From positions 2,108,001 through 2,172,000 of the forward strand of contig NZ_CP072934.1 of assembly GCF_024453815.1 (NCBI RefSeq): 64,000 nucleotides of DNA, in the 5' to 3' direction. This document shows, piece after piece, positions 350-62,851 of the stretch (its first letter is position 1; every line of letters starts with the position of its first letter). The translations under genes were made by a program, and so were the position numbers. The notes below the pieces were generated by a model. It was not told the DNA's origin, did not search any database, and saw only the letters and a program-made list of their open reading frames with translations. Source of the DNA: Corynebacterium pseudogenitalium. Its GTDB lineage: Bacteria; Actinomycetota; Actinomycetes; Mycobacteriales; Mycobacteriaceae.

Positions 350-428
350 GCGCACCAGATTCCGGCGTTTCGGCGAGCGTCCCAGCATTTCGCCCAGGTA
401 GCGCGCCTCGCGGGAGGGAATTTGGCGC
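350..428. repeat. Type B palindromic intergenic repeat, copy B1
   Basis: The left end reads GCGCACCAGATTCC and the right end GGAATTTGGCGC, forming an imperfect inverted repeat about 79 bp long overall. The internal core CCCAGGTAGCG is at 393-403. It matches the architecture of the type B copies at 6564, 42463, 42555, 42755 and 60735. Confidence 0.75.
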
Positions 429-443
429 ACGAGGAACAGGCAC

Positions 444-2090
444 CTACCCGCAGCGGACGATGGGCTGCGGGTCGTAGACCGTGGTGGTGGTTTCGCGGCT
501 GAGTTCGTTGCCGGCGAGGTCGGTGATCACGCGGGTGTCGGAGGTGGTGAAGCCGGGGGCGCCGCCGGACGGGGCGCAGTCGGGGCCGGTGACTGTGCGG
601 GGTTGTGGCTGGGTGTAGGCCCAGCGTCCGCCGTTGATGGACTGCACGTTGACGGTCTTGACGCCCATGAGGCTGACGGTGATGTTGCCGCCGCCGTAGT
701 TGGTGACGATTTTGACGGGGTGGTTGCTGTCGTTGCGGAAGGCGAGGTCGATGGCGCCTTCGTAGACGGTGGCTTCGCGCCCGGCTGGGTAGCGGGAGAT
801 GTAGTAGGAGTGTGGGGTGGAGGCGACGTCGGTCATGCCGGCGAAGTAGGCGGCGTTGTAGAGGGTGGTGGCGAATTGGGAGATGCCTCCGCCGACGGCG
901 GTGCCGCCGCGACCGTTGATGATGATGCCGGATTCAACGTAGCCCTGGGCGGTGCCGCGGGGACCGGTGTAGCCGTTGAGGGAGAACGTTTCGCCAGGGT
1001 TGACGATGGCGCCGTTGACGGTGTTGGCCACGATGCGGATGTTTTCGCCGGAGGCGCCACTGAAGCCGCCGGTGGTGAAGGAGCCGACGGTGTCGTTGAA
1101 GGTGGCTTGTTCGGCGTCGGCGGTGGTGAAGGCGGCGGGGACGTCTTTGTAGGTGGCGTCCCAGGTGCGGTCGGCGTCGTGGAGGAGGCGGTCGTCGAAG
1201 CCTTTGAAGGTGGCGTCCCAGTCGACGTTGATGCCGTCGACGGAGGGTTCGATGCCGCCGCTGGTGAGTACCCGGGCGTTCTTGGCCTCGACTTCGGACT
1301 CGTGCAGCTGCTCGCCGAGGATGGCGCCGGCTGCCTTGTGGTCCACGACGGGTTTCAGGACCTCGTCGAAGTGGAGGATCTCGCCGATGCGTTCCTTCGG
1401 GATCACGGCTGTGACATCTTCGCGGCCGTTGACGGTGAGTGGCCCGGAGAGGGCACGGTGGACCGGGCCGTCCATCGCTTCCTTGAGAGCAGGAGCGCCG
1501 ATGCGCGGCGCTATTGGTTGCGGCTCAACGGTGACGCCGTCTGGGTTGAGCCAGTGGGCGGTCAGCTGGGTGCGCAGCGCGTCGGCGGGCACGTCCTGGC
1601 CGTCCTCGGGGGTGCGTTCGCGGGCGGTGCCGCCTTCGAGGGTGATGGCGGCGTTGACGGGGTCGCGGTGCAGTTCTTTTTGCAGGCGGGTGATTTCTGG
1701 GGCGAGTTTCGCGTCGTCGACGCTGGGGACGACGGCCACTTCGTGCTCGCGGATCAGGCCGCTGAGGCGCTCAATCGGGCTTGCGGACTGCAGCCCGGCC
1801 GCCTCCACGGTCGCCAAGTAGTCGATGCCGAGCCCGGCGCGCTGCGGCACCACTTCGGCGCGCTCGGGCCCGGAGGTGACGGTGATGGGGCGTGAGGGGG
1901 CGTCGCCAAGCTGGGCTTTGAGCTCGGCTTCTGCTTCCTGCGGGGTGAGTCCGCCGATGGCGACGCCGCCGACGGTGGTGCCGCGCGGCACGTGGCCGCG
2001 GTTGAGCGCCAGGTCGGCGAGGTAGATGGCCAGCAGCACCGCGAGCACGCCCACGGAGAAGCCGATGAAGATCTTTGTTGCCCTATTCAC
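444..2090 (-). CDS. VanW-family protein with peptidoglycan-binding-like domains
   Basis: The protein has about 548 residues, with one N-terminal membrane anchor (FIGFSVGVLAVLLAIYLADL). Two segments resemble PG_binding_4 domains, roughly residues 70-190 and 200-310. A VanW domain follows at about 330-480, recognisable by NPGETFSLNGYTGPR and GGGISQFATTLYNAAY. The C-terminal tail carries two cysteines. Such proteins are envelope-located and thought to bind peptidoglycan or cross-linking stems; the exact role is unknown. I chose the GTG at 2090 because the anchor begins directly after it. An ATG at 2132 would add 14 residues and overlap the hexosaminidase gene. The short spacing to that gene suggests co-transcription. 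Confidence 0.85.
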   Translation of the reverse strand: MNRATKIFIGFSVGVLAVLLAIYLADLALNRGHVPRGTTVGGVAIGGLTPQEAEAELKAQLGDAPSRPITVTSGPERAEVVPQRAGLGIDYLATVEAAGLQSASPIERLSGLIREHEVAVVPSVDDAKLAPEITRLQKELHRDPVNAAITLEGGTARERTPEDGQDVPADALRTQLTAHWLNPDGVTVEPQPIAPRIGAPALKEAMDGPVHRALSGPLTVNGREDVTAVIPKERIGEILHFDEVLKPVVDHKAAGAILGEQLHESEVEAKNARVLTSGGIEPSVDGINVDWDATFKGFDDRLLHDADRTWDATYKDVPAAFTTADAEQATFNDTVGSFTTGGFSGASGENIRIVANTVNGAIVNPGETFSLNGYTGPRGTAQGYVESGIIINGRGGTAVGGGISQFATTLYNAAYFAGMTDVASTPHSYYISRYPAGREATVYEGAIDLAFRNDSNHPVKIVTNYGGGNITVSLMGVKTVNVQSINGGRWAYTQPQPRTVTGPDCAPSGGAPGFTTSDTRVITDLAGNELSRETTTTVYDPQPIVRCG

Positions 2091-2115
2091 CCGCCCCAGG
2101 GTAATAGAGTTTGGG

Positions 2116-3303
2116 CTATAACCCAACGTCAATGAGTTGTTGTTGCACGCGGGTCGCGGCTTCGTCGATGCGGGATTCGGGGATTTCTCCCTTTTCGACG
2201 CCCGCTACGACACCATCGATGATCCGCGCGATGTCGTGGCCGGAGGACCAGAGGGCTTGGTCGGCACCCGCGCTGATGGCGAGGCGGACCGCGTCCGGCG
2301 TGGGGGCGTATTCGAGGATGCCGCGCATGCCGGAGAGGTCGTCGGTAACGGCGACGCCTTCGAAGGGGACACCGCCGGGGTAGTCGCCTTCGCGCAGGAT
2401 GCGGTAGGCCTCCGGGTTGAGGCTGCTGGGCACGCCCTCGGCGCCGAGGCCGGGCACGATCATGTGGCCGACCATGACGCTGGCGCGCGGGAAGCGCTGC
2501 AGGAGCTCGCCGTAGGGGACCAGGTCGAAGGCGTGCAGGTCCCCGATTGGGGGCGTAGTGGCGAGCTTCTTGTGGGTGTCGCCTGAGGCGCGGCCGTGCC
2601 CCGGGAAGTGTTTGAAGGTGGGGGTGACGCCGGAGTCGAGAAGGCCTTGGGAGAAGAGCCCGGCGATGCGGGCGACCTCGGCGGGGTCGCGGTGGAAGGC
2701 GCGGTCCCCGATGATGGCCAGGTCGGCGGCATCGATGTCGACGACCGGGGCGTAGTCCACGTTGATGCCGTGGGCGCGAAGCGAACGGCCGATGTCGTAG
2801 CCGGTGCCCTGGATCACCGCGGGTGTGCCGGCGGCGAGGCGACCGGGCGCGGGGAAGTCCCCCAGGATGTCGGTGTGGCGTTGGACTCGGCCGCCCTCGA
2901 AGTCGATGGCGACGGTGAACCCGCGCGGGTACTGCTCGCGGAGAGCGTTGATGTCGTGGCCGGGGTCGTCGAGAAGCTTGGGGTCGGCCCAGCTGGGGAT
3001 GATAAGCCCGCCGACGCCCTGATCGAGGGCCGCGCGGGCCTGGTCGTAGTTCTTCACCCCGACAACCATGAGGGAGGCCACCCGCGCACGCAGGTCCTCC
3101 GGGACGCGCTGCTGGGCTGGCGTTTTGGGGACGATCTCGGTGATCGGCACCGTGTCGGTGGGCAAAAGTGGGATGTGGTTGTGGAGCGGAGCGGGCGTCG
3201 TCACGGGTTGTGGGGCCGGCTCGGGCGCGCACCCGGCGAGCACGACGACGAGCCCCGCCGTCACCGCGGCGGACCCCCATACACGTCTGGTACGCTTTTG
3301 CAC
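2116..3303 (-). CDS. lpqI: Lipoprotein beta-N-acetylhexosaminidase, glycoside hydrolase family 3 (LpqI/NagZ-like)
   Basis: A signal peptide with lipobox VVVLAGC predicts a lipid-anchored protein of 395 residues. The GH3 signature KHFPGHGRASGDTHKK is at about residue 215, and AVTDDLSGM supplies a probable catalytic or substrate-contacting Asp. The family removes N-acetylglucosamine from muropeptides in peptidoglycan turnover. In mycobacteria the homologue LpqI (Rv0237) neighbours the small secreted protein Rv0236A and AftD, and the same order is seen here. The GTG start at 3303 is immediately back to back with the divergent DUF2613 start at 3304, so a leaderless transcript is plausible. Confidence 0.93.
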   Translation of the reverse strand: MQKRTRRVWGSAAVTAGLVVVLAGCAPEPAPQPVTTPAPLHNHIPLLPTDTVPITEIVPKTPAQQRVPEDLRARVASLMVVGVKNYDQARAALDQGVGGLIIPSWADPKLLDDPGHDINALREQYPRGFTVAIDFEGGRVQRHTDILGDFPAPGRLAAGTPAVIQGTGYDIGRSLRAHGINVDYAPVVDIDAADLAIIGDRAFHRDPAEVARIAGLFSQGLLDSGVTPTFKHFPGHGRASGDTHKKLATTPPIGDLHAFDLVPYGELLQRFPRASVMVGHMIVPGLGAEGVPSSLNPEAYRILREGDYPGGVPFEGVAVTDDLSGMRGILEYAPTPDAVRLAISAGADQALWSSGHDIARIIDGVVAGVEKGEIPESRIDEAATRVQQQLIDVGL

Positions 3304-3480
3304 ATGTCAAACCGTACTACCTTGCCTTCCGTTGTGGCTAGCGCCGTCGTCGGTGTTGTGCTCGGCGTGGTGGGCGTGATTGGGGTAGCGGCGTTCTCCG
3401 GGCAGAATTCCGTGCCGGTGTCCAACGCCGTCCCGGCAGACGAGGCCGTGCTTGGCGGCCCGGAATATGGCGCGCGCTAA
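3304..3480 (+). CDS. Small DUF2613-family secreted or membrane protein
   Basis: This 58-residue protein has one hydrophobic segment (residues 11-32, rich in V and G) followed by a short polar tail. The ATG is at 3304. It matches the actinobacterial DUF2613 family; the mycobacterial counterpart Rv0236A sits in the same place beside aftD. Its 3' end overlaps the start of aftD by 14 bp, which implies translational coupling. Function is unknown; the constant neighbourhood suggests a link to arabinan synthesis or LpqI. No Shine-Dalgarno sequence fits upstream because the first base abuts the divergent gene. Confidence 0.85.
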   Translation: MSNRTTLPSVVASAVVGVVLGVVGVIGVAAFSGQNSVPVSNAVPADEAVLGGPEYGAR

Positions 3481-6421
3481 ACTCCGCAGCCTCACTCCCC
3501 ACTTGGTCGCGTGGGCAATCATCGCGCTGATTGTGTGGGCGCAGGCGCCGGGGCAGATCGCCGCGGACACCAAGTTCGACCTCACCACCAACCCGGCCGG
3601 GTTCCTCGCGCAGGCGATGCACGCCTACACGGACCGCTTCACGCTCGGGCAGCTGCAGAACCAGGCGTACGGATACCTCTTCCCCCAAGGCGTGTTCTTC
3701 CTGCTGCCGCTGCCCGCGTGGGTGTTGCAGCGCTGCTGGTGGACACTACTGGTCGGGTTGGCGTTCTCCGGGACGTACGCGCTGGCCAGACGGCTGGGCA
3801 TGCGCGGGGTGGCGGGCCCGGCGGTGGCCGGGGCGCTCTACGCGTTCAGCCCGCGAATCCTAACCACGCTGACCGCCATTTCTTCGGAGGCGTGGCCGGT
3901 GGCGTTGGTGCCGTGGACGCTGCTGCCGCTCCTGGGGGACCAACGCCGGGGGCCGCGCCTTGCCGCCGCGCTACTGCCGGTGGCGTGCATGGGCGCGGTC
4001 AACGCGACGGCCACCATCGCAGCCTGCCTACCCACCCTGCTCGTGCTGTGCGCGCAGCGCCACTGGCGCGCCGCCGCACTGTGGCCGGTGGGCGCAGTGC
4101 TGGTCAACGCGTGGTGGCTCGGCCCACTCGTGGTGCTCGGCCGCTACTCCCCACCGTTCACCGACTTTATTGAGTCCGCCTCAGTGACCACCGCGTGGCT
4201 CAACCCGATCGAGGTTCTGCGCGGCACCACCAGCTGGGCCCCGTTCGTCGACGCCGAGCGCGCCGCCGGGCACCTCCTGGTCACCGAGCCCGTATTCGTG
4301 CTGCTCACGGCGGGTGTGGCGGCGCTCGGCGTCGCGGGGCTAGCCCGGCGCGACATGCCCGCCCGCGGCCCGCTCGTCGCGGTCTTCGCGGTGGGCGTCG
4401 GCCTGTTGTGTTTCGCGCACGCCCACCCCTTACTTTTCGACGCCCCCCTCGCCGCCTTCCGCAACCTGCACAAGTTCGACCCGTTGGTCCGCCTCCCCCT
4501 GGCGTTGGGGGCCGGGTGGGTGGTGTCCCGGGCGCGAACCCCGCAGCTGGTCGGCGCCGTCACGCTGGTGGCGGTCGCGGTATCCCCGGCGTGGTCGCTG
4601 CGCCTCCTCCCGCAGGGCACCTGGCAGGAACCATCCGAAGATTGGGTCGCGGCAGCCCGCTGGCTCGACGAACACGCCACCGGCACCCGCACGCTCGTCG
4701 TCCCCGCCGCGCCTTTCGCCCGCCAGACCTGGGGCTGGACGCGCGACGAACCCATCCAGGCGCTCAGTCAGGCGCGCTTCGCAGTGCGCGACGCCATCCC
4801 CCTCGTCGACCCGGAGGCGATCCGCGGCCTCGACGGCCAGGTCCGCGCCGTGGACTCGGAGGCGCTGCGCGCCATCGGGGTGGGCGTCGTCGTGGTGCGG
4901 CACGATTTGGAGGAGGCGGTGGCGTCGACAAGCGTGCCTAATCTTGGCGAGCCGACCGTGCGCTTCGGGGACGTCGATATCTATGCGCTGGAGCCCACGC
5001 GCGACATGATGCTGACCAGCGCCACCCCCGTCCGCGTCGACGCCGGCGGCGAGGCCCTGCCCCTGTTGTGGCGCGAGTTCGGCTACTTCCCCGCCACCCT
5101 GACCAGCGGCGATGCGGACATCGTGACCGATACCCCGGCGCTGGCGGTGCGCAACTACGGCGCCGTGCAGCGCGCGCAGTCCGCGCACCTGGCCACCGCT
5201 TCGGAGGGCAAAGACGTGCGCAACCGGGTGCCAGACTACCCGTCTGCGGGCACACCCGTCGGCGTAGCCATGGCAGGCAGCGCTTCAGCTTCTTCCTCCG
5301 CCGCCGACGCCACCGCCTTCGGCGGCGCCCGCGCCTCCCGGTCACTGACCGCCGCATTCGACGGCCTCGACGACACCGCCTGGTGGCCCGCCGCCCAAGA
5401 CCCCCACCCGTGGCTACGCTTCACCCCCAACGCCGACACCGCCACCATCACCGCCACCGCCAACACAAAAGTGCAGGTCACGGACGCTTCCGGCGAGCGC
5501 ACGCTCAGCCTCGTCGCCGACCAACCCCGCACCATCAGCGTACGCGGCGAAACCACCCTCACGCTCACCGAACCCGTCGGCATCACCGAAATCGACGCCG
5601 GCATCCACCGCATCGTCGACGTCCCCGGCACAGCCGACACCTACTTCTTCCAACGCCTCATGCCCGAAACCACCACACTGCAGCGCGCCTTCACCACCGC
5701 CGAAGACGCCGAATGGCACCTCTCCTCCCCCGCCCTTATCGACGGCTCCTCCGCCACCAACACCGTCTTCCTTCCCGCCGGGCGCCACGAATTGGTCACG
5801 GACGCCGAAACGATCACGCTGCGGCGCGGGCCTGCGCCTGCTGTTTCTTGGGAGCCGGTTATTGGTGGCGCAGTTGTGCCCGCCGACCAGGACCGCCTGC
5901 TCATCACCACCCGCGCGTTCAACCCAGGGCTCCAAGCCAGCCTCGACGGCGAACCCCTCACCGCCCAACGCATCGACGCCGGCCAGCTCGCCTTCCGCAT
6001 CCCCGCAGGCCACGGTGGCACCCTCACGTTCTCCTTCGCAGGCGAGCGCCCCTACCGCCTCAGCCTATTCGGCGGGGCGGCGCTCAGCCTGGTCACCGCG
6101 CTGGTGTTGCTGTGGTTCGCGTGTCGACGCCGGTTTGTTGGCACTCCGGCCCGCCCCATCCCCGGCAGGATGGTGGCAGCGTTGCCGCTGGCAGCCGCGC
6201 TGTGCATCAACCCGGTACTCGGGATCGTCAGCGCCATCGGAGTCTGGGCGGTGCGCCGCTTTACCCTCCTGGCCAGACGCTACATTGCCGCCGGCGCCAT
6301 CACCGCCATGGGATTGTGGCTGGCCCGCGCGCCCTGGCCTTCCGCCGGGTACGCCGGCGACGCCGCCCTCATGCTCGTGGCCGGATGCGTCGCGGTGGCC
6401 TGCCTCGCCTGGCCGGACTAG
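3467..6421 (+). CDS. aftD: Arabinofuranosyltransferase AftD, DUF3367 GT-C family
   Basis: A large polytopic protein of about 984 residues. The first ~380 residues are membrane segments typical of GT-C glycosyltransferases, for example around GALYAFSPRILTTL. A long extracytoplasmic part follows, then about four membrane helices at the C-terminus. The family transfers arabinofuranose from decaprenyl-phosphoryl-arabinose during arabinogalactan and lipoarabinomannan synthesis on the outer face of the membrane. It is shorter than the mycobacterial enzyme (about 1400 residues), as usual in corynebacteria. The ATG at 3467 inside the DUF2613 gene is preferred; an in-frame ATG at 3452 would add five residues. 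A type A repeat follows 25 bp after the stop. Confidence 0.9.
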   Translation: MARAKLRSLTPHLVAWAIIALIVWAQAPGQIAADTKFDLTTNPAGFLAQAMHAYTDRFTLGQLQNQAYGYLFPQGVFFLLPLPAWVLQRCWWTLLVGLAFSGTYALARRLGMRGVAGPAVAGALYAFSPRILTTLTAISSEAWPVALVPWTLLPLLGDQRRGPRLAAALLPVACMGAVNATATIAACLPTLLVLCAQRHWRAAALWPVGAVLVNAWWLGPLVVLGRYSPPFTDFIESASVTTAWLNPIEVLRGTTSWAPFVDAERAAGHLLVTEPVFVLLTAGVAALGVAGLARRDMPARGPLVAVFAVGVGLLCFAHAHPLLFDAPLAAFRNLHKFDPLVRLPLALGAGWVVSRARTPQLVGAVTLVAVAVSPAWSLRLLPQGTWQEPSEDWVAAARWLDEHATGTRTLVVPAAPFARQTWGWTRDEPIQALSQARFAVRDAIPLVDPEAIRGLDGQVRAVDSEALRAIGVGVVVVRHDLEEAVASTSVPNLGEPTVRFGDVDIYALEPTRDMMLTSATPVRVDAGGEALPLLWREFGYFPATLTSGDADIVTDTPALAVRNYGAVQRAQSAHLATASEGKDVRNRVPDYPSAGTPVGVAMAGSASASSSAADATAFGGARASRSLTAAFDGLDDTAWWPAAQDPHPWLRFTPNADTATITATANTKVQVTDASGERTLSLVADQPRTISVRGETTLTLTEPVGITEIDAGIHRIVDVPGTADTYFFQRLMPETTTLQRAFTTAEDAEWHLSSPALIDGSSATNTVFLPAGRHELVTDAETITLRRGPAPAVSWEPVIGGAVVPADQDRLLITTRAFNPGLQASLDGEPLTAQRIDAGQLAFRIPAGHGGTLTFSFAGERPYRLSLFGGAALSLVTALVLLWFACRRRFVGTPARPIPGRMVAALPLAAALCINPVLGIVSAIGVWAVRRFTLLARRYIAAGAITAMGLWLARAPWPSAGYAGDAALMLVAGCVAVACLAWPD

Positions 6422-6445
6422 ATTTTGGTTGCCCGGCCGCCTGCT

Positions 6446-6547
6446 GAAAAAGTTCCCGCGCTCGGGAATTTTGGGTTTTCGGCCGGTTCCGGTCGACCGA
6501 CGTGACGTTTCCCCAGGTCGCGTCGTCTGTCTACGAAGAAAGTTCCC
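6446..6547. repeat. Type A intergenic repeat, copy A1
   Basis: The element begins with GAAAAAGTTCCC and ends with GAAGAAAGTTCCC. A small inverted repeat (TTCCCGCGCTCGGGAA) lies at the left end. The shared core GTTTCCCCAGGTCGCG is at 6507-6522. The block GGTCGACCGACGT just before the core also appears in copy A3, which the IS21 element interrupts. Copy B2 follows after 16 bp. Confidence 0.8.
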
Positions 6548-6563
6548 ACGACCGCTGCTTCTT

Positions 6564-6642
6564 CGCACCAGATTCCGGGTTTCCCGCGAGTGCGTTTGCA
6601 AACCCCCAGGTCGCGCAAACCTCATGCAGGAATTTGGTGCGC
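6564..6642. repeat. Type B palindromic intergenic repeat, copy B2
   Basis: The left end CGCACCAGATTCC and right end GGAATTTGGTGCGC (6629-6642) form an imperfect inverted repeat. The core CCCAGGTCGCG is at 6605-6615. Same orientation and spacing as copy B1. Confidence 0.8.
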
Positions 6643-15729: not shown

Positions 15730-15790
15730 ACTCCGGTTCACTCATACTCAACGCGCTCTGCCTGCCCCCATCCCCCTCCCTTCCATCTGC

Positions 15791-15825
15791 AAAAAGTTCC
15801 CGCGCCCTGCGTCTGGGAACTTTTT
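15791..15825 (+). terminator. Terminator-like hairpin, left arm of repeat A2
   Basis: AAAAAGTTCCC (15791-15801) and GGGAACTTTTT (15815-15825) make a perfect 11-bp stem ending in a T-run. It is the left part of type A repeat copy A2, so the repeat seems to double as terminator for the gene ending at 15729. Confidence 0.7.
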
Positions 15826-15913
15826 CGCGTTTTCGGGGGTTTCGGAGCTCACCTCCGAACGCGTTTCCCCAGGTCACGTCGTTCGCTCGCTCGAGCCCGC
15901 TGAAATAGTTCCC
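15791..15913. repeat. Type A intergenic repeat, copy A2
   Basis: The left end AAAAAGTTCCC is at 15791-15801, the core GTTTCCCCAGGTCACG at 15863-15878 and the right end GAAATAGTTCCC at 15902-15913. The right end is shared with the next copy, A3, giving a tandem arrangement. Confidence 0.75.
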
Positions 15914-16100
15914 AAGCTCGGGAACCATTTTGCGTTTTGCAGCTGCTCTAGTCGACTGTTGCGACCGGCTATTTGGTAGCAGTGTCGTGACTATCCGGTA
16001 GCACGACAGTGAGTATCTGGTAGCGCTGCACATCTCCTCACGTTCATACTTCCGGTAGCCACACCACACGGGTGTGGCATCAACCGGAAGGAGTCCGCTC

Positions 16101-17744
16101 ATGACGGATTACCGCGCGATAATGACGTTGCTGATCAAACAGCGTTCTTATCGCCAAATAGAACAACAACTCGGGTGCTCGCACCGTGCAATCGCACGCG
16201 CGAACCACACACTGCGAACCTGTGGATTTAGCACCGTTGAACAAGTCGCAGCGCTGACAGACAACGAGCTAGACGAGTTGTTCGTTGACAAACGAAGTAC
16301 CGGGCAAGGTGAATTCGTCCCGATTGACTTCGAAAAAGTCGTCAAAGCCCGCACAGGACGTACAAAGCAGACCCTGCAAGTCTTATGGGCACGCTACACC
16401 ACCACCCCAGCCGGTCCGGGGCAGCGTCACTACAGCTACGACAGGTTCCGCCAACTTGTCGCAGCACATGTCGACGCGACCGGGCTTTCAGCACGCATCA
16501 CACACGCACCAGGACACACCATGCAAGTCGACTGGGCAGGCACCAAGATGCGACTGTTTGACCCAACCGGGAAACCGGGTGCAAAAGTCAGTATCTTTGT
16601 CGCCTCTCTGCCATATTCAGGGATGCTGTTTGCCTGTGCATGTGCTGACCAACGCCAACAGGCCTGACTTGATGCTCACCGGTGTGCATTCGAATACTTC
16701 GGTGGTGTCTGCCAAGTCGTCGTGCCTGATAACGCGTCGACTGCGTCGAACGCAATCAGTACGTCAGATAGAAACCGGAAGGTCAATGACACCTACGAAC
16801 AGTTCTTGGAGCACTACAACACTGCAGCTCTTCCTGCCCGCCCGCGTCGACCGAAAGATAAAGCGAATGTGGAAGCCGCAGTCAAAATCGTCACACACAA
16901 GATCATCCATGCACTCGATGGTCACCAGTGTGTTGATCTTGACGAGCTCAATGACAAGATTGTCAGCCTTGTCGATGCAATGAACGATGCCACGCCGTTT
17001 CGGAGTCAGCAATCAAGCCGCCGGGACCTGTTTGAAACCTATGAGCAGCATCTTCTTGCCGATCTGCCGCAAACACCATGGCAGCACACCGAATGGAAAC
17101 GCGCGAAAGCCGCACCAGATTTCCACATCATTGTTGCCACGGTGCGCTACTCGGTACCGCATCAACTCGTTGGGCGCACCGTCGATGTGCGTATCACCGG
17201 CCAGGTACTGACAGTCTTTGATGCAGGTCAAACCGTTGCAACCCACCGGGTTTCACATACACGCGGGGCCTATGTCACTGACTGTGACCACATTCCCTCA
17301 GGCATGGATACCACACGCGGGTTGTGGACGAGTGAGTACTTCTACCGTGAAGCCAGCAAAGTTGGGCCGGCAACACGCAAAGTCATCGAAGAGCTCATCG
17401 CAGCAAAAGCAATCCCGGCCCAGGCTTATCAGTCGTGTCGCAACGTGTTGTCGATGGGCAAACACGCCAACAAACCCATTTTGGAAGAGGCCTGCCTGCG
17501 CCTGACAGCCAATGATGGCAGCCGACGTGCCGTGTCCTATACCGCAGTAAAAAACATGATGGCCGCGGTACGCAAAGAGCACACCACCCGACCCCGCGGG
17601 TTCGACCAAGCACAACGCACTACTACACCAATCTTGCCTGATTCGGCTGTGATTGAACATCGCGATACCACTGGGGCACTACTTGGCGGCGCAGACCAGT
17701 TCAGCATGGACAACCTTATGAAGAAAGGAACCCGAAACACATGA
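16101..17744 (+). pseudogene. istA: IS21 transposase istA with one in-frame stop
   Basis: The first part (16101-16667) has an N-terminal helix-turn-helix (SYRQIEQQLGCSHRAIARA) and the start of the DDE domain (HTMQVDWAGTKM). A TGA at 16665-16667 interrupts the frame, which then continues unchanged to 17744. The continuation includes FEYFGG, the VPDN tract, KANVEAAV and the C-terminal domain. IstA proteins usually have Trp at this position (QxxWLDAH), so TGG to TGA is the likely change. GGAAGGAG precedes the ATG at 16101. Its end overlaps istB by 4 bp. Confidence 0.88.
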
Positions 17745-18509
17745 CAAACTCAACCCCGCCAATGGATCGATTTCTTGATGAATCTGTCCTTGCTGACTTC
17801 ACAGCGTTGCGTATGACCGCGTTCGGTAAAACCGTGATCGACATTGCTAATGACCCAGCATTCGACACGTGGACGTTTTCACAAAAGGTGCTCTACGCAC
17901 TAGATAAGGAAGTCGCGGCCAGGCGTGAACGACGCATCAACAAACTTTTGAAAGCATCCCGATCGCCAAACCTTGATGCTTGTCTTGAAAACGTGGTGTG
18001 CACACCTGCCCTCAACATCAACCCGGAGCAAATCAGCCGACTCGCTCATGGTCAATGGTGCCATTTGGGACAAAACATTGTCATCCTGGGCAAATCCTGA
18101 AGTCGGCAAGACCTACCTGGCCCAAGCATTAATCAACGCGGCATGCCGCAACGATTACTCCGCGAGTTTCTACCGCACGGACATGCTTGCAGCACAACTT
18201 GCAGTCTTACAGCCCGATAACCCCACCCGGTTGAAGTTCATTGAGCAACTCCACAACGTGGACGTACTTGTCCTGGATGACTTTTTAACCACGCCGATTG
18301 ATGCTGCCACGGCGCATCAGATATTTAATATCCTCGCCGCGCGCGAACATACCGGCTCGACGATTGTGACCTCCCAGTTCACCCCGAAAGACTGGTATGC
18401 GTCGATTCCTGACGCGGTCATTGCAGAGTCGATTCTCAACCGGCTTGTCGTTGGTGCTGAGATCATCACGCTGGAAGGACCGAATATGCGCTTAGAAGCC
18501 AACGAGTAA
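17741..18509 (+). pseudogene. istB: IS21 helper ATPase istB, frameshifted in the Walker A motif
   Basis: The first frame (17741-18100) carries the N-terminal domain and ends with ILGKS then stop. The other frame resumes at PEVGKTYLAQALINAA and runs to 18509, with Walker B VLVLDDF and the usual C-terminus. Removing one T at about 18095 restores GKPEVGKT, a proper Walker A. The single-base insertion therefore destroys the nucleotide-binding loop. Confidence 0.88.
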
Positions 18510-18704
18510 CCCTCCAACGTCTCCGTGGCCCCTGGGTGATCCCTGCGCTACCGGGTACTCACTCAGGTGCTACCGGATACTCACCACGCCGCTACCATTT
18601 CAGTCTTCTAAACAGTCGACCGACGTAGTGTTTCCCCAGGTCGCGACGACTGACCACAAAGAAAGTTCCCAGGACCACGGGATAATGGAAAACAAGGCAC
18701 ATGC

Positions 18705-42462: not shown

Positions 42463-42540
42463 GTGCACCAAATTCCCTCGGCGAGAGTCAGCGACCTGGG
42501 CGTTTGCAGATCAGCGCACGAGAATCCAGGAATTTGGTGT
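42463..42540. repeat. Type B palindromic repeat, copy B3 (reverse orientation)
   Basis: GTGCACCAAATTCC (42463-42476) and GGAATTTGGTGT form the ends. The core reads GCGACCTGGGCGTTTGC, the reverse complement of the B1/B2 core. Confidence 0.75.
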
Positions 42541-42554
42541 CAGGCCAGGTGGGG

Positions 42555-42635
42555 TGCGCACCACATTCCCGCATGCAAGTCCGGCGACCTGGACAAACGT
42601 AAAACCCACCCACTGAAATGCTGGAATTTGGTGCA
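42555..42635. repeat. Type B palindromic repeat, copy B4 (reverse orientation)
   Basis: The ends are TGCGCACCACATTCC (42555-42569) and GGAATTTGGTGCA. The core is GGCGACCTGGACAAACG. It lies 14 bp from B3 and 14 bp from C2. Confidence 0.75.
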
Positions 42636-42649
42636 GGGTCGAGCGGGGA

Positions 42650-42740
42650 AGTGACAAAGGACGCATCCCCAAAAGTGCTGGACATTCAAACCTGCAGGTA
42701 GATAAAGAGCTATATATATTAGGGTGCGTCTTTTGTCACT
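42650..42740. repeat. Type C inverted-repeat element, copy C2
   Basis: The terminal repeats AGTGACAAAGGACGCA (42650-42665) and TGCGTCTTTTGTCACT (42725-42740) differ at one position. The internal GACATTCAAACCTGCAGGT is shared with C3 and in part with C1. It lies 14 bp from both B4 and B5. Confidence 0.8.
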
Positions 42741-42754
42741 GACACCCCGAGCAA

Positions 42755-42834
42755 GCGCACCAAATTCCGTCCCGCGAGCCGCACCACCTGGGGAAACGCA
42801 AAACCCGCCCACCAAACCAAGGAATTTGGTGCGC
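42755..42834. repeat. Type B palindromic repeat, copy B5 (reverse orientation)
   Basis: The ends GCGCACCAAATTCC (42755-42768) and GGAATTTGGTGCGC (42821-42834) are perfect 14-bp inverted repeats. The core ACCTGGGGAAACGC is the reverse complement of GCGTTTCCCCAGGT. This is the cleanest type B copy. Confidence 0.85.
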
Positions 42835-50741: not shown

Positions 50742-51962
50742 CTACGGACCCAACGCCCCAATCGGCGCAACAATCACACCGTCCGCACGCCTGTGGACCG
50801 GACCCCCTGAGGTCACGATGAGCAAAACTGTTTCCTGTTCAAGCTGATCCGCAAACCGTTTAAGCGTATCTGCGGCGTGGTCAAGAATCTCTGGCGTATA
50901 GCCAAGCTTCACTTCGACGAGTAAATCAACATCGTCAAAGCTGACTACAGCATCCACTTCGAGCTTTGTATTCAGCCTTGCGTGGTACACCGTCTTGCCA
51001 GTCAAAGCGCGTAATTCGTGCACAACGAGCGACTCAAACAGTTGCCCAAAATAGCGGGCATCCTGCATCAGATGATGTGGGCCTCGCTCAAGGACAGCCA
51101 TGGCGAACGAAGGGTCAGCGAGGTGACGCTTGGGAGACTTTCGCAACGTTGCTTTTGTCCTCAGGTGAGTCGACCAGGCTGGTTGATCCACGGAGACGAA
51201 AATCCGAGAAAGCGCGTCAAGGTAGTCACGCGCCGTATCGCGACTCACTTCGACGTCGGTTGCAATCGTCTGTAGGCCAAGCTCTGTCCCCACGGCTCTT
51301 GCAATAGAGCGCAAAACTCTACGAACCCGTTCCGAGTCGCGAGTCACATCCCCAACCGTGTGAATGTCTACGTCCGCGACTGTTTGCATGTAGTCGCGGA
51401 CGTTTTGAATGGCATCTTCCAAAGAAAGATCCATATTGTAGGGCAGGCCACCACGACACATCCGATTCGCTAAATCCGCAAATTCGAGCGGCGGAGTTGC
51501 AAAAGCAGGAGACTTACCAGCAACGACATCCCGCAAAGATACCGAGCCATCCGATTCGCCGGATTCAAATAGCGTCATGGTCGACATCGTCAATCGCGCA
51601 AATCTACCTGCCCCGGAGTGGCGAGTCGCGTTCACCCCAGGCGCTGTCGAGCCTGTGAAAATGAACTGCCCTTTCGCTTTGCGCCGATCAATTTCGTGTC
51701 GCGCAAAATCCCACAGGCGAGGATGCAGTTGCCACTCGTCGACAAGGCGAGGTGCCTCCCCATCGAGCAGCAACCGTGGATCGGTAGCCATCGCCAATGG
51801 GACGCTGGGATCGGTTTCAACATTCAAAATGCTTCCCGCTTGTCGGCTTGCCGTCTCTGTTTTCCCGCAGCCTTTTGGTCCCTGGATGAGCACCCCACCT
51901 TGCCGCCGAAGCGCTGCCTCTAATTGAGCGTCCGCAATGCGGGCAATATACGAATCCACCAT
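50742..51962 (-). CDS. AAA-family ATPase with DUF4143 (PD-(D/E)XK-like) domain
   Basis: The 406-residue protein has Walker A IQGPKGCGKTETA at about residues 26-38 and Walker B APRLVDEWQ at about 88. A DNA-binding-like middle region follows, then a C-terminal DUF4143 domain with LEVDAVVSFDDVDLLVEVKLG, a nuclease-like D...EVK pattern. Such proteins are common in genomic islands; a general function is not known. Three and a half copies of a 23-bp tandem repeat lie 36-116 bp upstream, suggesting autoregulation or a dedicated binding site. Confidence 0.88.
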   Translation of the reverse strand: MVDSYIARIADAQLEAALRRQGGVLIQGPKGCGKTETASRQAGSILNVETDPSVPLAMATDPRLLLDGEAPRLVDEWQLHPRLWDFARHEIDRRKAKGQFIFTGSTAPGVNATRHSGAGRFARLTMSTMTLFESGESDGSVSLRDVVAGKSPAFATPPLEFADLANRMCRGGLPYNMDLSLEDAIQNVRDYMQTVADVDIHTVGDVTRDSERVRRVLRSIARAVGTELGLQTIATDVEVSRDTARDYLDALSRIFVSVDQPAWSTHLRTKATLRKSPKRHLADPSFAMAVLERGPHHLMQDARYFGQLFESLVVHELRALTGKTVYHARLNTKLEVDAVVSFDDVDLLVEVKLGYTPEILDHAADTLKRFADQLEQETVLLIVTSGGPVHRRADGVIVAPIGALGP

Positions 51963-51997
51963 GAGGATAAATCATAGCCATGAACTGCCTATTCCGC

Positions 51998-52078
51998 ACT
52001 TTGAAATGGTTTCACTCGTCATTTTGAAATACTTTTACTCGGCAGTTTAGAATGGTTTTACTCGCCACTTTGAAATCC
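51998..52078. repeat. 23-bp tandem repeats upstream of the DUF4143 ATPase gene
   Basis: Three full units (51998-52020, 52021-52043 and 52044-52066) plus a 12-bp partial unit. Each reads like ACTTTGAAATGG then TTTNACTCGNC. The first 31 bp (51996-52026) recur exactly at 59079-59109. Confidence 0.85.
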
Positions 52079-57554: not shown

Positions 57555-57566
57555 CCCGTAAATTAT

Positions 57567-57910: not shown

Positions 57911-58132
57911 ATGCGCAGGCCTTACTACAGGACATCACGCGGACGCGTCATTGCAGGGGTCTGTGCAGGGCTCGCAGAACGCTACGGTCGCAGCCCAGAC
58001 ACAATCCGTTGGTGGTATGCAGTAGCGCAACTATTTAGCTTGCCCGCCATTGCCACCTATATCCTCCAGTGGTTGTTGTATCCGCTCGACGATAACCCTG
58101 AGCCGCCGGAAACTGAGCAACCTGCAAGCTGA
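57911..58132 (+). CDS. PspC domain-containing small membrane protein
   Basis: The 73-residue protein is a PspC domain. RGRVIAGVCAGLAERYGRSPDTIRW is the basic N-terminal part and the following hydrophobic stretch (LFSLPAIATYILQWLLYPLDD) the membrane segment. The tail is acidic and Pro-rich. PspC proteins respond to envelope stress. GAAGGGA lies 6 nt before the ATG at 57911. Confidence 0.88.
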   Translation: MRRPYYRTSRGRVIAGVCAGLAERYGRSPDTIRWWYAVAQLFSLPAIATYILQWLLYPLDDNPEPPETEQPAS

Positions 58133-58266
58133 CCAGCCAAGAGACGAGGTGGCGTGCCAGGTACCGCGCCCCACCGAATCTATCGGCAACGTCCTACACG
58201 TACAGGTGCAGTCCCGTACATTTATGGCATACCTATTAGTAGCTACATGCCGCTAGGTGTTTCCAC

Positions 58267-58983: not shown

Positions 58984-59363
58984 GGAAAAACGTGTAAGCG
59001 TGGCTTGTGCCTTCCGGCGGATCTGCACCGATCAGATCGATAGCACTACCCGCTCATAGTCTTCTACCAGCACGTTCGGCACTTTGAAATGGTTTCACTC
59101 GTCATTTTGGAGGTCCATCCCCACCGACAGCACAAAGCCCTCAACCGAGCGCCCATGCCACTTCGCCCTGACAGATGCTCTAGACACTGCCATCATGCCC
59201 AGGCTGGCAATTGTTCACCCATTCGGTACAGATGGTGAGGCAATCATTGGGAGCAGGTGCGCTTTCCACCTATCCTTTGATGTTGCTTCAAATAGCAAAG
59301 GATAGATGTCTAAGTTTATAGGTTGGGTACGACATCACAACTTTGCATGCTAACTTATGACGT
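58984..59363. other. Gap upstream of the Fic gene with a copy of the ATPase-upstream repeat
   Basis: No gene is supported. A 31-bp block at 59079-59109 is identical to 51996-52026, but the tandem array is not extended here. The right half is AT-rich and should hold the Fic promoter. Confidence 0.55.
59079..59109. repeat. Second copy of the ATPase-upstream repeat unit
   Basis: Identical over 31 bp to 51996-52026: GCACTTTGAAATGG, then TTTCACTCGTCATTTTG. It is a single unit plus the beginning of another. Confidence 0.85.
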
Positions 59364-60533
59364 ATGGTGTGGCCGAGTGTGACTTATGAGACTTTGCCGT
59401 GGCAGGCTGCAACCGAGAATATATCGCGTCGGGCGCAGCTACGTACGCCGCGAAAATACGAGAGCGCCATAGTCCCGCGCATCGCTAACGAGGAATTGCA
59501 GCTACGCCCTGAAACGCTTGCAGCCGCGGATCGAGCAACCATCGCGGTGACGCGTTTCGACGCCACACACGCCACAGACCTCATTCCTTTTATCCCACTT
59601 TTGCTGCGCGGTGAAGCCGTCGCATCGAGTAGAATTGAACAACTTACCTCCTCGTCTCGCAAGATATTTGAAGCGGAACTTTCTGGTTCGGGGTCGGCCA
59701 ATGCAAAGCTGATCGTGGCGAATGTTCGACAGATGCAACGGGTGATTGCAGTTGATACAGCAACAACTGAAACGTTGTTGGCGATGCACAGTGTGCTTCT
59801 GCAGGACGCTGCACCGAGAATCGCAGGTCGACTGCGCGAGCAGCCGGTGTGGATCGGTGGACCGGACAACCACCACCCGGGCGGTGCATTGTTCGTTCCG
59901 CCGCACCACGATCATGTACCGGAGCTGTTGGCGGATCTGGAGAGGTTCATGTCGCGCCGCGACATCCCAGCGTTGGCGCAGGCCGCGATTACACACGCTC
60001 AGTTGGAAACCATCCACCCCTTCGCGGACGGAAACGGGAGGACAGGGAGAGCCCTCGTTCATGTGTTGCTGAAAACCCACGGCATCAGTGTCAATGGGTC
60101 GGTGCCAATCTCTGCAGGTTTGCTGTCCCATATTGATGACTACTTTGCTGCACTGGACGCATACCGGCAAGGTGACGCCGACCAAATCGTCAACCTTTTC
60201 GCAGCAAGTGCGCTCGAAGCCGTCGAGTACGGCACGTGGATCGCAGATGAACTGAATACGCTGCTGGATGAGTGGAAGCAACAGTTGACCGCACGCTCCG
60301 ATGCCCTTGTATGGAGAGTGCTCCCGTTGTTGTTGCAGCGGCCGGTAATCACCACGCGGATTGTGGTAGAGGAATTAGGAGCGACGCAGACCTCAGCAGG
60401 AAATGCGCTCGAAGCACTCGCGCAGGCCGGCATCGTTACCGGAGCACAGCTGGACAGACGCACCCGCGCCTGGCGAGCCCCCGACGTGTTGGATTTGCTC
60501 AATGAGTTCGCCGAGCAGAGGCGACGCACTTGA
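59364..60533 (+). CDS. Fic/DOC family protein
   Basis: The 389-residue protein has the full Fic motif HPFADGNGRTGR at about residue 217, so it should be active in AMP transfer. An N-terminal helix (VASSRIEQLTSS, about residue 90) resembles the inhibitory S/T-x-x-x-E-G/N helix but has Gln after Glu. The C-terminus has a winged-helix-like domain (VVEELGATQTSAGNALEAL). Such proteins modify targets such as gyrase or act with antitoxins. No separate antitoxin gene is seen, in keeping with the built-in helix. Confidence 0.9.
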   Translation: MVWPSVTYETLPWQAATENISRRAQLRTPRKYESAIVPRIANEELQLRPETLAAADRATIAVTRFDATHATDLIPFIPLLLRGEAVASSRIEQLTSSSRKIFEAELSGSGSANAKLIVANVRQMQRVIAVDTATTETLLAMHSVLLQDAAPRIAGRLREQPVWIGGPDNHHPGGALFVPPHHDHVPELLADLERFMSRRDIPALAQAAITHAQLETIHPFADGNGRTGRALVHVLLKTHGISVNGSVPISAGLLSHIDDYFAALDAYRQGDADQIVNLFAASALEAVEYGTWIADELNTLLDEWKQQLTARSDALVWRVLPLLLQRPVITTRIVVEELGATQTSAGNALEALAQAGIVTGAQLDRRTRAWRAPDVLDLLNEFAEQRRRT

Positions 60534-60554
60534 GGCGCAGAGCCCAGCGCCGCG

Positions 60555-60716
60555 ATGCCTTCGGCAAGAATCACTTGGTTGACTTTGATGGCAACGGCGA
60601 CGCTGGCATGCATCACACTGATCGTGGCAGGACCTGTGCCGAATATTCTGTGGGCCGCGCTGGTGGGCGCAGCCGCTGGCTGCCTGGTACGCATCACCGA
60701 TAGGAAGAAGCCGTAG
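60555..60716 (+). CDS. 53-residue membrane peptide
   Basis: An ATG at 60555 opens a frame to the TAG at 60716. It encodes two hydrophobic segments (LTLMATATLACITLIVAG and ILWAALVGAAAGCLV) and a basic C-terminus RITDRKKP. It begins 21 bp after the Fic stop. No Shine-Dalgarno is clear. I recognise no family, and it may be a coincidence of frame. Confidence 0.45.
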   Translation: MPSARITWLTLMATATLACITLIVAGPVPNILWAALVGAAAGCLVRITDRKKP

Positions 60717-60805
60717 CGTAGGGCCAAGAGCTGCGCGCACCAAATCCCCGAATTTCCCTTAGTGTCAGGATGGTTGTGAACGTCAATCCATAGGAGGTTT
60801 TGTTC

Positions 60806-61723
60806 ATGACCGACCCACAGTTGCCTGAGTTGGTGCCGTCAGCGTTGACGTCACCACCGACCGTTGCAACCCCGGTAAGGACCCACGGGGGCAAGACTAA
60901 AACATCACGCGAGGAAGTCAAAGAGATCCTAGCAATGCCACCGCGTGTGCTGGCAGCGGGGCAAGTACTCGATGAAGACACGTTGGCCTCACTTCAAGCA
61001 GTAGCAGTCGTGTTCTCCCCGTACCGCACTACTGGCTCTGGCAGGTGGTTTCATCCAGCACAGCAGCGACAAATGATCACGATTTATAACCGGTTGCCGT
61101 ACGGCACGAAAGGCCCATGGTGCACCCGACAGGCAATCCAGTCTTGCGATATCAAGCGCTGGGCCCGCGCATTACAGTTATCAAAGTCCACCACTGATGG
61201 TTTAGATGGTATTCAACGAGCCAAACGCAGCGTTGATGAAGCATATCGGGGAAGGTATTCACCTGACTACATCCGTGAGATGGCCATTGAATATCAGCTG
61301 GTGCCGTATGGCCAGAAAGAAGCGTGGTTGATTGAACATGGACTTGCTGACCACACCGTGCGACGCTGGACAGCAATGGTTGCCGATGGTGATCTCACCA
61401 CGCGTACTACACCAAGGAGGATTGGAACATTGACGATGGATGAGTGCGTTGAAATCCAGCAGTTACGCAAGGAAGTCTCCGCGTTGATGCAGCAAAAGCG
61501 CAAGCTCGAACTCGATGCGAAGCGTCGGGAGGAAGCTATGCAGCGTGCCCTGGATAAGGCAACAGAAAGAGCAGAGCGGGCTGAACTAGCCACTGATGTG
61601 TTGGGAAAAGCTTTAGCGACCATGCCAGGGCAACATGGCGTGGACTCAAACGTGGCGGAAGAGTCCTCACTCAAGACCAACAACGCCTCTACGACCAAGG
61701 ACAACACGCAGAAGAAACACTGA
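60806..61723 (+). CDS. IS3-like transposase subunit OrfA
   Basis: A 305-residue protein with two helix-turn-helix-like regions (tracts YSPDYIREMAIEYQLVPYGQKEAWL and DHTVRRW) and a C-terminal coiled coil (LRKEVSALMQQKRKLELDAKR), as in IS3 OrfA proteins. It is much longer than the usual 100 residues. AGGAGG lies 8 nt before the ATG at 60806. The slippery G GGA AAA (61603-61609) would move ribosomes into the orfB frame, giving a fused transposase. Confidence 0.85.
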   Translation: MTDPQLPELVPSALTSPPTVATPVRTHGGKTKTSREEVKEILAMPPRVLAAGQVLDEDTLASLQAVAVVFSPYRTTGSGRWFHPAQQRQMITIYNRLPYGTKGPWCTRQAIQSCDIKRWARALQLSKSTTDGLDGIQRAKRSVDEAYRGRYSPDYIREMAIEYQLVPYGQKEAWLIEHGLADHTVRRWTAMVADGDLTTRTTPRRIGTLTMDECVEIQQLRKEVSALMQQKRKLELDAKRREEAMQRALDKATERAERAELATDVLGKALATMPGQHGVDSNVAEESSLKTNNASTTKDNTQKKH

Positions 61724-61764
61724 TTGACCAGTTAGTTGACTGTGGCTATTCGAAAACTCACGCA

Positions 61765-62739
61765 ATGCGCATCATCGGAGTCTCACGCAGCCGCGTGTTC
61801 TATCAAACGAAGCCACGCCCACGTGTTGCCGATCCAATTGCCTACGACAAACGACGGATCAACCGACTGTCCGATACCACTGTCGAGCGCATCTTGGAAT
61901 TGCTAGACGCCAATCCACATTCCGGGGTGGACCAGGTGTTTTACGCCGCGTTAAACAACGGGATTTACCTGGCAAGCCTGCGCAGTTTCTACCGAGTTGC
62001 CAAAAAACATGGACGATTGCTCTACCAACGACACAACACCAAAGCCAAGCAAGCTCAACGCAAACGAAACGCCTCCCCGCCACATGTACGCGCCACAGCA
62101 CCAGGCCAGGTACTGTGCTGGGACATTACCTTCTTGCCTGGCCAATACGTCGGACAAAACTTCGCATGCCACACGGTCATTGACCTGTACTCCCGCGCAA
62201 TCGTTGGCTGCGTCGTAGCAGAACGCGAAAACAGCCACGTAGCAGCAGCAATGTTTGACGACATCCTGACTCGTTTTCCCCACGTGAAAACCGTGCACTC
62301 TGATAACGGCAGTGCGATGACAAGCAAACGCCTCGGCAAACTCTTCGCCAAACACGGTGTGGCCCGCTCATTTAACCGGCCTCACACCAGCAACGACAAT
62401 CCGCATACCGAGTCGGTATTCCACACGATGAAAGGCAGGACCTACTACCCGAAAACGTTTGCCACACTCGGCCACGCCAAAAACTGGCTCAACGAATGGG
62501 TGCCGGTCTATAACGCCACTCCCCACAGTGGAATCAACTACTACCCACCACAAGCAATCCTCGACGGCACCTGGGACAAACTGCAACACCAACGCGAGGA
62601 GGGGATGCGAAACGCGCTACGCGAAGGCATCATCACTCAACTTCCGAACACCGCAGCTGGCACAGGCATTCCGGCAGAAGTCAGCATCATCCGCACCACT
62701 ACCCAAACCGCCCCGCCCCCACAACCCATCACGATCTAA
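61765..62739 (+). CDS. IS3-like transposase subunit OrfB (DDE integrase)
   Basis: A 324-residue integrase-core protein. The catalytic acids are visible: Asp in VLCWDITFLPG, Asp in KTVHSDNGSAM and Glu in DNPHTESVFHTMK, 35 residues apart as expected. The frame is open upstream to the slippery heptamer at 61603, so the real product is probably an OrfA-OrfB fusion; the ATG at 61765 is only the first in-frame start. C-terminal signature NATPHSGINYYPPQ is typical. Confidence 0.9.
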   Translation: MRIIGVSRSRVFYQTKPRPRVADPIAYDKRRINRLSDTTVERILELLDANPHSGVDQVFYAALNNGIYLASLRSFYRVAKKHGRLLYQRHNTKAKQAQRKRNASPPHVRATAPGQVLCWDITFLPGQYVGQNFACHTVIDLYSRAIVGCVVAERENSHVAAAMFDDILTRFPHVKTVHSDNGSAMTSKRLGKLFAKHGVARSFNRPHTSNDNPHTESVFHTMKGRTYYPKTFATLGHAKNWLNEWVPVYNATPHSGINYYPPQAILDGTWDKLQHQREEGMRNALREGIITQLPNTAAGTGIPAEVSIIRTTTQTAPPPQPITI

Positions 62740-62851
62740 CACCCAACCATGTTCACAACCACTTGACATAAAGCGTTTCGGTTGGGCGCCGAGACGTTTC
62801 CCCAGGTCGCGCGAAGTCGACGCGGGAATTTGGTGCGCGTACAAGAGAAAG

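What the first reader, a model, noticed from the sequence alone, without database searches (positions are those of the whole stretch)
350..62838. Modular family of dispersed palindromic intergenic repeats (types A and B) sharing a core
At least nine copies lie only between genes. Type B (350, 6564, 42463, 42555, 42755, 60735) has inverted ends GCGCACCAAATTCC/GGAATTTGGTGCGC. Type A (6446, 15791, 15902) has AAAGTTCCC ends. Both carry GTTTCCCCAGGTCGCG near the right end, although the ends are unrelated. A shared core with swappable ends suggests a common recognition factor, such as a REP-associated transposase-like protein, a nucleoid protein or an RNA chaperone. I know of no named corynebacterial family with this layout.
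Basis: partly seen in the sequence, partly recalled or inferred. Interest (0 to 1): 0.75.

Follow-up and report, generated by a model that had tools for sequence, protein, structure and literature searches.

The report
Corynebacterium palindromic repeats with conserved core
Small palindromic repeats scattered between Corynebacterium genes share one short central sequence while their ends differ from family to family, and the centre sits relative to the ends in steps of about one DNA helix turn, which suggests docking sites for a protein complex on double-stranded DNA.

Summary
The window's 60735 copy is half of a B element split by an IS; the sister strain G135 has it whole. The shared core (TTTYCCCAGGTCG) recurs in other Corynebacterium species with many unrelated palindromic ends. 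Main new result: the palindrome's dyad takes few registers relative to the core, about -14, -3.5 and +7 in asymmetry units, roughly 10.5 bp apart. A prediction noted beforehand held in 48 of 48 armed elements at new loci. Elements are 97% intergenic, favour convergent gene pairs and the origin half, show no long target duplication, and differ at 16 of 31 orthologous sites. RAYTs are not the partner: Y1 transposases occur in 5 of 242 genomes. Helical phasing argues for a complex on duplex DNA rather than an RNA hairpin. Best reading: mosaic, partly mobile sites where a widespread core factor pairs with changing arm-binding proteins. Those proteins are unidentified.

The parts
247..336 (+). type C2 element (C arms, GCAGGT-type core)
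   Evidence: scan; R2 hit G000:C1:2108247-2108336; ortholog in G135
350..430 (+). type B element; absent from the orthologous site of G135 (97 bp between aligned blocks here, 22 bp there)
6446..6549 (+). type A element (left hairpin AAAAAGTTCCC/GGGAATTTT, core 6507-6522, right arm AAGAAAGTTCCC); limits by eye
6564..6642 (+). type B element
15790..15890 (+). type A element (hairpin arm plus core 15863-15878); right limit approximate
15901..15973 (+). left half of a type A element split by an IS21-like element
   Evidence: intact in G135
15974..18597 (+). IS21-like element inside the A element (53-nt inverted ends; IstB split over two ORFs)
18598..18675 (+). right half of the split A element, core 18630-18645
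42463..42542 (-). type B element, first of a B-B-C-B array
42556..42636 (-). type B element
42650..42740 (+). type C2 element
42755..42834 (-). type B element
60735..60756 (+). left end of a B element split by an IS
60757..62775 (+). IS with an rve-domain protein inserted in the B element, 4-bp duplication TTTC
62776..62838 (+). right part of the split B element with core 62796-62811
62852..62942 (+). type C2 element
   Evidence: R2 hit G000:C1:2170852-2170942

Best explanation
The repeats belong to a class of interspersed mosaic elements found in many Corynebacterium species, mostly about 75-100 bp: two inverted arms flanking one conserved, asymmetric core (about GCGTTTCCCCAGGTCGC; variants AAAANCCCAGGTCG and, with C arms, GCAGGTNA). 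Shown here: arms differ without visible relation between families, the core is shared, and the dyad of the arms takes only a few registers, about one helical turn apart, relative to the core. Inferred: the elements are sites on duplex DNA for one nucleoprotein complex. A widespread core-binding factor, probably a DNA-bending one, folds the short DNA so that arm-binding proteins, whose specificity changes from family to family, meet on the same face of the helix. The elements are gained, lost and exchanged as units without a long target duplication, settle most often between convergent genes and in the origin half of the chromosome, and keep arms and core while the interior drifts. Whether the complex transposes the element or serves the host is open; I favour a mobile, non-autonomous element that works like the E. 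coli RIB/BIME type (inverted motifs around a host-factor site).
For: (1) Register: 26 distinct arm families give asymmetries -16..-13, -4..-2 and 6..7, best period 10.5 bp, R = 0.91; arms found by the same routine at random places (126 of 6181 score 11 or more) give R = 0.15. A prediction noted beforehand held in 50 of 50 armed elements among 73 core hits, 23.8 expected by chance; 48 of the 50 are new loci, with 15 new arm families. (2) One arm type in two registers: C arms with CCAGGTC lie at -15..-13 in 22 of 25, C arms with GCAGGTNA at -4/-3 in 6 of 6 (the other 5 of 11 armed GCAGGTNA hits have no C arms). (3) 44 of 104 core hits have arms scoring 11 or more against 2.2% of 880 random positions. 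(4) Interior identity of 59 B sequences of this genome has median 0.40, while arms and CCAGGTC are nearly fixed. In 21 orthologous pairs with G135: arms 6/552, core 3/290, interior 30/802 differences; core against interior p = 0.025. (5) 16 of 31 orthologous intervals differ in content; one B is present here and absent in G135. (6) Adjacent B elements keep a 19-nt linker in 43 of 45 short gaps. (7) Intervals with elements: convergent 36/64, tandem 22/141, divergent 9/74; 55 of 62 B+C clusters in the origin half.
Against: No core- or arm-binding protein was found, and no gene neighbour recurs across many species. Only three main registers exist (plus +30 in one genome, G171, in phase only at the edge of the allowed range), so few independent shifts may underlie them, and the Rayleigh p-values, which treat families as independent, are not literal. 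In the new families alone the best period is 11.0, and with raw arm-end offsets instead of dyads 10.5 is not the best period. A few B variants were counted as separate families. In the own clade 4 of 77 armed cores lie outside the main register (-27, -18, -17, -8). C arms show two-sided compensated changes (pair 5/81: CG 7, AU 6, other 1), as a hairpin would. The near-fixed arms and core are partly by selection of the rows (arms within 2 mismatches, core within 3), and the arm count has the same bias. 11 of the 17 same-species comparisons show the same array content.
Confidence: 0.55

Rival explanations
1. Ordinary MITEs: non-autonomous or dead derivatives of insertion sequences with the same terminal repeats; the core is leftover sequence.
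For: Short, non-coding, inverted ends, patchy copy number, presence/absence as a unit. A mild excess of 2-bp flanking repeats (8 of 36, 2.4 expected) would allow a very short duplication.
Against: No longer target duplication: of exact flanking repeats of 4 to 10 bp only one, of 7 bp, in 36 elements. The same core with dozens of unrelated ends (39 distinct arm families) is not expected of leftovers from different ISs. G135, which has many elements, has no IstB-type IS21 (only DnaA and one sub-threshold match).
Confidence: 0.2
2. REPINs moved by a RAYT (Y1/HUH transposase) through single-stranded hairpins.
For: Hairpin-capable doublets with conserved ends and variable middle, tandem clusters, as described for REPINs (PMC3116915, passages).
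Against: Y1_Tnp in 5 of 242 genomes, with 0 or 1 core hit each, and none in the own genome. Helical phasing is not expected of single-stranded hairpins.
Confidence: 0.07
3. Functional RNA hairpins: transcription terminators or mRNA 3' stabilisers whose loop carries a protein-binding motif.
For: Location after genes and between convergent genes; C arms covary at one pair; different species keep pairing with different stems.
Against: B arms: 1 two-sided change in 102 sequences, below shuffles. Registers about one DNA turn apart. Some elements lie beyond a recognisable terminator-like hairpin (sequence, by eye).
Confidence: 0.15
4. Host chromosome-organising sites kept by selection, rare near the terminus as nucleoid-occlusion sites are in other bacteria (that comparison is recalled).
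For: 55 of 62 B+C clusters in the origin half, one in the terminal third; 48 of 69 core clusters in 13 other species; core changes more slowly than interior at fixed sites.
Against: Copy number runs from none to about 95 between species of the genus; array content changes within a species in 6 of 17 comparisons.
Confidence: 0.2

Closest known systems
E. coli RIB/RIP and other BIMEs (PU/REP mosaics with an IHF site; Boccard & Prentki 1993 seen only as a title in the reference list of PMC2267715; details recalled)
   Same: Mosaic of inverted motifs around a host-factor site, at 3' ends of transcription units, in regular arrays.
   Different: No visible PU/REP sequence; many unrelated arm types; the core does not look like an IHF consensus (recalled, not tested); registers one turn apart do not appear in the passages I read.
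REPINs with RAYTs (PMC3116915, passages)
   Same: Inverted doublets able to form hairpins, conserved ends, variable middle, tandem clusters including flanks.
   Different: No RAYT; a conserved central core; ends differ while the core stays.
GTAG- and CGTC-tagged REPs (PMC3733652, passages)
   Same: Palindromic families, several per group of bacteria, mostly outside genes; the CGTC type lacks a dedicated transposase.
   Different: Those are small stem-loops tagged at one end; the phyla named for them in the passages read do not include Actinobacteria.
Cod-1, Cod-3, Cod-5 of C. diphtheriae (PMC2267715: outline, sections 8 and 11, passages)
   Same: Stem-loop repeats of 74-170 nt in 17-35 copies, Cod-1 and Cod-5 mainly intergenic.
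   Different: Sequences are not given with these names in the main text; identity with the present class could not be tested.
MITEs
   Same: Short, non-coding, inverted ends, dispersed.
   Different: No target duplication of 4 bp or more as a rule, no parent IS found, one core shared by many end types.

Membership tests
REPIN/RAYT | two inverted end motifs forming one hairpin-capable unit | tested here: met
   95.9% of cells of the 12 B end pairs are standard pairs (rows were chosen for their ends)
REPIN/RAYT | RAYT (Y1_Tnp) gene in the genome | tested here: not met
   0 in own genome; 5 of 242 genomes, with 0 or 1 core hit each
REPIN/RAYT | GTAG or CGTC tag outside the stem | tested here: not met
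   no such unpaired terminal tag in the B and C alignments (by eye)
MITE | terminal inverted repeats, no coding capacity | tested here: met
   length under 100 bp; 97.1% intergenic
MITE | target-site duplication | tested here: not met
   exact flanking repeats of 4, 5, 6, 8, 9, 10 bp 0 of 36 and of 7 bp 1 of 36; 2 bp 8 of 36 (2.4 expected), 3 bp 2 of 36; one presence/absence site without a clear duplication
MITE | parent IS with the same ends | tested here: inconclusive
   IstB-type IS21 not found in G135; other transposase families not searched
RIB/BIME | inverted motifs around a site for a host DNA-binding factor | tested here: inconclusive
   arrangement and phasing seen; factor unknown
RIB/BIME | location at 3' ends of transcription units | tested here: met
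   (crude gene caller): convergent 36/64, tandem 22/141, divergent 9/74 intervals hold elements
RIB/BIME | PU/REP sequence | not tested
   no PU consensus was searched
Cod-1/3/5 | sequence match | not testable with these tools
Rfam RNA families | match over gathering score | tested here: not met
   0 matches in the window; other loci not searched

The most novel reading that the evidence does not exclude
A previously undescribed two-part DNA architecture system of Corynebacterium: one old, widespread core-binding architectural protein partnered by fast-diversifying arm-binding proteins, assembled only in helix-phased registers at origin-biased, terminus-poor sites between convergent genes, and used by the cell for chromosome organisation, supercoil control or division-site control.
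Probability: 0.2. Interest if true: 0.9.

Novelty: new variant of a known kind. Interest (0 to 1): 0.7.

Why it matters
Interspersed palindromes are usually sorted by their ends. Here the ends are the changeable part and a central core is the constant, with a geometry that seems quantised by the DNA helix. That gives a direct handle on the unknown protein (pull-down with one core sequence should work in several species), suggests how ends can change while a class of repeats persists, and makes the old question of what REP-like repeats are for testable in a genus with industrial and medical members and almost no RAYTs.

Tried and rejected
RAYT as partner: rejected. IS21 (IstB) as general partner: G135 has only its DnaA and one sub-threshold match, yet many elements. 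Linked autonomous gene: clustering of ORFs in the loci around cores gave no family shared by many species; the widest spans three genomes and looks like translated repeats. Core alone as evidence outside the genus: rejected, because 100 of 298 genomes of the order (a few Corynebacterium among them) hold TTTYCCCAGGTCG; I suspect chance coding matches (GACCTGGGRAAA reads D-L-G-K). Of 20 such places from other genera 1 had arms. Known RNA: no Rfam match in the window. Phages: CGTTTCCCCAGGTCGC occurs in 16 IMG/VR stretches, not followed up; the exact B pattern in none. The exact B pattern hit 51 stretches in genome contigs, 6 of them outside Corynebacterium; those 6 were left out of all counts as probable chance and not examined. 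Orientation against replichore: none seen (p = 0.48). Raw offsets of arm ends gave weaker periodicity than the dyad and no peak at 10.5 (at 10.5 left p = 0.0019, right p = 0.0067 for 23 hand-chosen rows, 0.012 and 0.059 for all 30; the left side is strongest at 8, the right at 13 bp); seven rows were dropped by hand there. The dyad measure does not depend on where an arm is cut. In the validation set 73 core hits were analysed of 95 places listed: the rest were not fetched, lay too near the end of a stretch, held N, or repeated a hit. One search was a failed script; one search had wrong strand handling and was redone. The list, whose output was cut, wrongly contains paired arms and was used only to spot IS insertions by eye. 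In one search, 11 of 35 element pairs were dropped for unequal length or identity under 75%. The genome searches scored only 150 of 983 and 150 of 1315 candidates, so the copy numbers are lower bounds.
Full report
What was checked. The window is G000:C1:2108001-2172000 of a single-contig genome of 2,389,603 bases; Corynebacterium records hit by a contig scan with the exact B pattern are NML98-0116, NML130628 and NML140438. G135, 'same species', has the record length of NML98-0116 (2,365,449); G160 shares contig coordinates with NML130628. Corrections: the 60735 copy is half a B element split by an IS, 15902 is half an A element split by an IS21-like element, and both are uninterrupted in G135. 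A third end type, C, was missed: AGTG[A/C]CAAA.GACGCA...TGCGTC.TTTG[T/G]CACT, mostly 79 bp with core AAAAGCCCAGGTCGTGAAAA (C1) or 90-91 bp with core CATTCAAACCTGCAGGT (C2).

Numbers. A covariance model of 102 B copies finds 95 B places in the own genome (129 matches before merging the two strands of one palindrome), 10 of them below 45 bits; a model built from C1 copies finds 41 C places (81 matches; I merged strands and removed three overlaps with B and one short match). Both searches scored only 150 candidates, so these are lower bounds. In 242 Corynebacterium genomes 22 have a B-model match; four (own, G135, G160, G161) reach the limit of 19 scored candidates.

The wider class. The weak matches in other species carry the same core but other palindromes, for example GCACAATGATCCCCC... 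in G037, GAACAAATCTCCCTCACGTT... in G230, CCGCCACTTTTTGCA... in G213, and 93-94-bp arrays with GTGCCAAAG or GTGCCAGATTT in G147. TTTYCCCAGGTCG occurs in 117 of 242 genomes; the reversed pattern has 9 hits in all by my count of the table. Because 100 of 298 genomes of the whole order also hold it, the core alone proves nothing, and I used the arms as the test: 44 of 104 core hits have inverted arms scoring 11 or more, against 2.2% of 880 random positions. Outside the genus 1 of 20 places had such arms. So in the genus many core hits, more than half, lack clear arms; some of these look like coding matches.

Helical registers. For each core I measured the asymmetry of the palindrome round CCAGGTC, which does not depend on how far the arms are followed. 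In other Corynebacterium species all 52 armed elements (of 110 core hits) fall at -16..-13 (14), -4..-2 (29) or 6..9 (9). In the own clade 73 of 77 (of 134 core hits) lie at -15..-13, the others at -27, -18, -17 and -8. Over 26 distinct arm families the best period between 5 and 20 bp is 10.5 (R 0.91), against 0.15 for arms found at random positions. I then noted the prediction and fetched new loci from 22 genomes: 50 of 50 armed elements (of 73 core hits analysed, of 95 places listed) are in phase, 23.8 expected; 48 of the 50 are loci not seen before, with 15 arm families new by my clustering. The +30 class of G171 (3 elements) is in phase only at the edge of the allowed range. In the 15 new families alone the best period is 11.0 (R 0.907; 10.5 gives 0.884); over all 39 families it is 10.75 (R 0.894; 10.5 gives 0.883). 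C arms with CCAGGTC lie at -15..-13 in 22 of 25 cases, C arms with GCAGGTNA at -4/-3 in 6 of 6: one arm type in two registers about a turn apart. Few registers exist, so common ancestry of layouts lowers the true number of independent trials.

DNA or RNA. B ends show one two-sided change in 102 sequences, fewer than in shuffles. C ends show a compensated pair, C-G in 7 and A-U in 6 of 14 sequences, and C-G 5, A-U 4, U-G 1 in C2. One-turn steps are a property of duplex DNA; I therefore favour a duplex complex, with the C covariation read as both arms following one binding specificity (inference).

Dynamics. Of 31 comparisons of orthologous intervals, 16 differ in element type, number or order: 6 of 17 with G135, 10 of 13 with G160, 0 of 1 with G161. 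Examples: own BBCB against G160 BBB and G135 C at window 42463-42834; own CBBB against G135 CB, 186 bp apart, the G135 B looking like the left half of one own B joined to the right half of another; elsewhere B and C swap at one site. An interval scored as empty can hold a decayed element (1966048). The B element at 350-430 is missing in G135 while the C beside it is kept. B interiors are near saturation (median identity 0.40 among 59 sequences) and the closest copies lie mostly near one another, so much of the turnover may be exchange of old alleles and unequal crossing-over rather than fresh jumps. In 21 orthologous element pairs with G135 the core changes more slowly than the interior (3/290 against 30/802, p = 0.025). 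Flanking repeats of 4 bp or more are absent but for one of 7 bp in 36 elements; 2-bp repeats are in mild excess (8, 2.4 expected).

Place. Elements are 97.1% intergenic (21.1% of sequence, own crude gene caller, 733,728 bases of own, G135, G160 and G161 stretches, chosen largely because they hold elements) and prefer convergent gene pairs. dnaA lies at the start of the contig; 55 of 62 own clusters are in the origin half, 1 in the terminal third. In 13 other species, picked from the listed part for having three or more hits and dnaA at the contig start, 48 of 69 core clusters are in the origin half (armed and unarmed cores together; G076 and G094 with rounded lengths, G013 and G038 with several contigs).

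Partners. RAYTs and IstB-type IS21 are excluded as general partners; no linked gene recurs widely. ISs use the elements as landing sites: the rve-type IS of the window sits in B, and by eye the same kind of IS end interrupts C and B elements elsewhere in this genome and in relatives; another IS of about 3 kb sits in a B element whose uninterrupted counterpart is seen in G160 (by eye).

Literature. In the rows shown by eight searches of the held library I saw no paper on such a family in Corynebacterium apart from the one with the Cod families; subscription papers are mostly not covered. I read passages of PMC3116915 and PMC3733652 and the outline, sections 8 and 11 and passages of PMC2267715; all other papers were seen as search listings only.

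Verdict. How it works is inferred, not shown, and the proteins remain to be found.

Noticed in passing
window 60757-62775: IS with an rve-domain protein (ORF 61765-62739), end CTTAGTGTCAGGATGGTTGTGAACGT, 4-bp duplication TTTC; by eye similar ends interrupt B or C elements in loci L006, L060, L069, L071, L073 and L080, so these palindromes look like preferred landing sites.
   Followed up: partly
window 15974-18597: IS21-like element with 53-nt inverted ends and IstB split over two ORFs; matches with the same IstB scores lie at G000:C1:1683002-1683698.
   Followed up: partly
window 51992-52072 and 59075-59109: Repeats of 23-bp spacing (TTTGAAATGGTTTCACTCG...), looking like multi-repeat transposon ends, near a DUF4143/AAA gene (50742-51962) and a Fic-domain gene (59364-60533).
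   Followed up: no
G000:C1:1552-1733 and G080:C1:1604: Elements sit just downstream of the DnaA_C match (1237-1437 and 1267-1467) in two species with different arms.
   Followed up: no
G000:C1:170612-173615 (in L182): A second kind of IS, about 3 kb, inside a B element; uninterrupted counterpart in L075 (G160); similar end in L003. Read by eye.
   Followed up: partly
L226-L230, L238-L242 (G096, G092): Arms of the type TCGTAGAAGTTGAC/GTCAACTTTTGCGA seem to recur beyond single elements and may cause the ORF cluster; not verified.
   Followed up: no
L321 (G478, another genus of the family): One core outside Corynebacterium with arms ATTGAACACCGTTA in the -4 register, 59 bp: possible distant member.
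   Followed up: no
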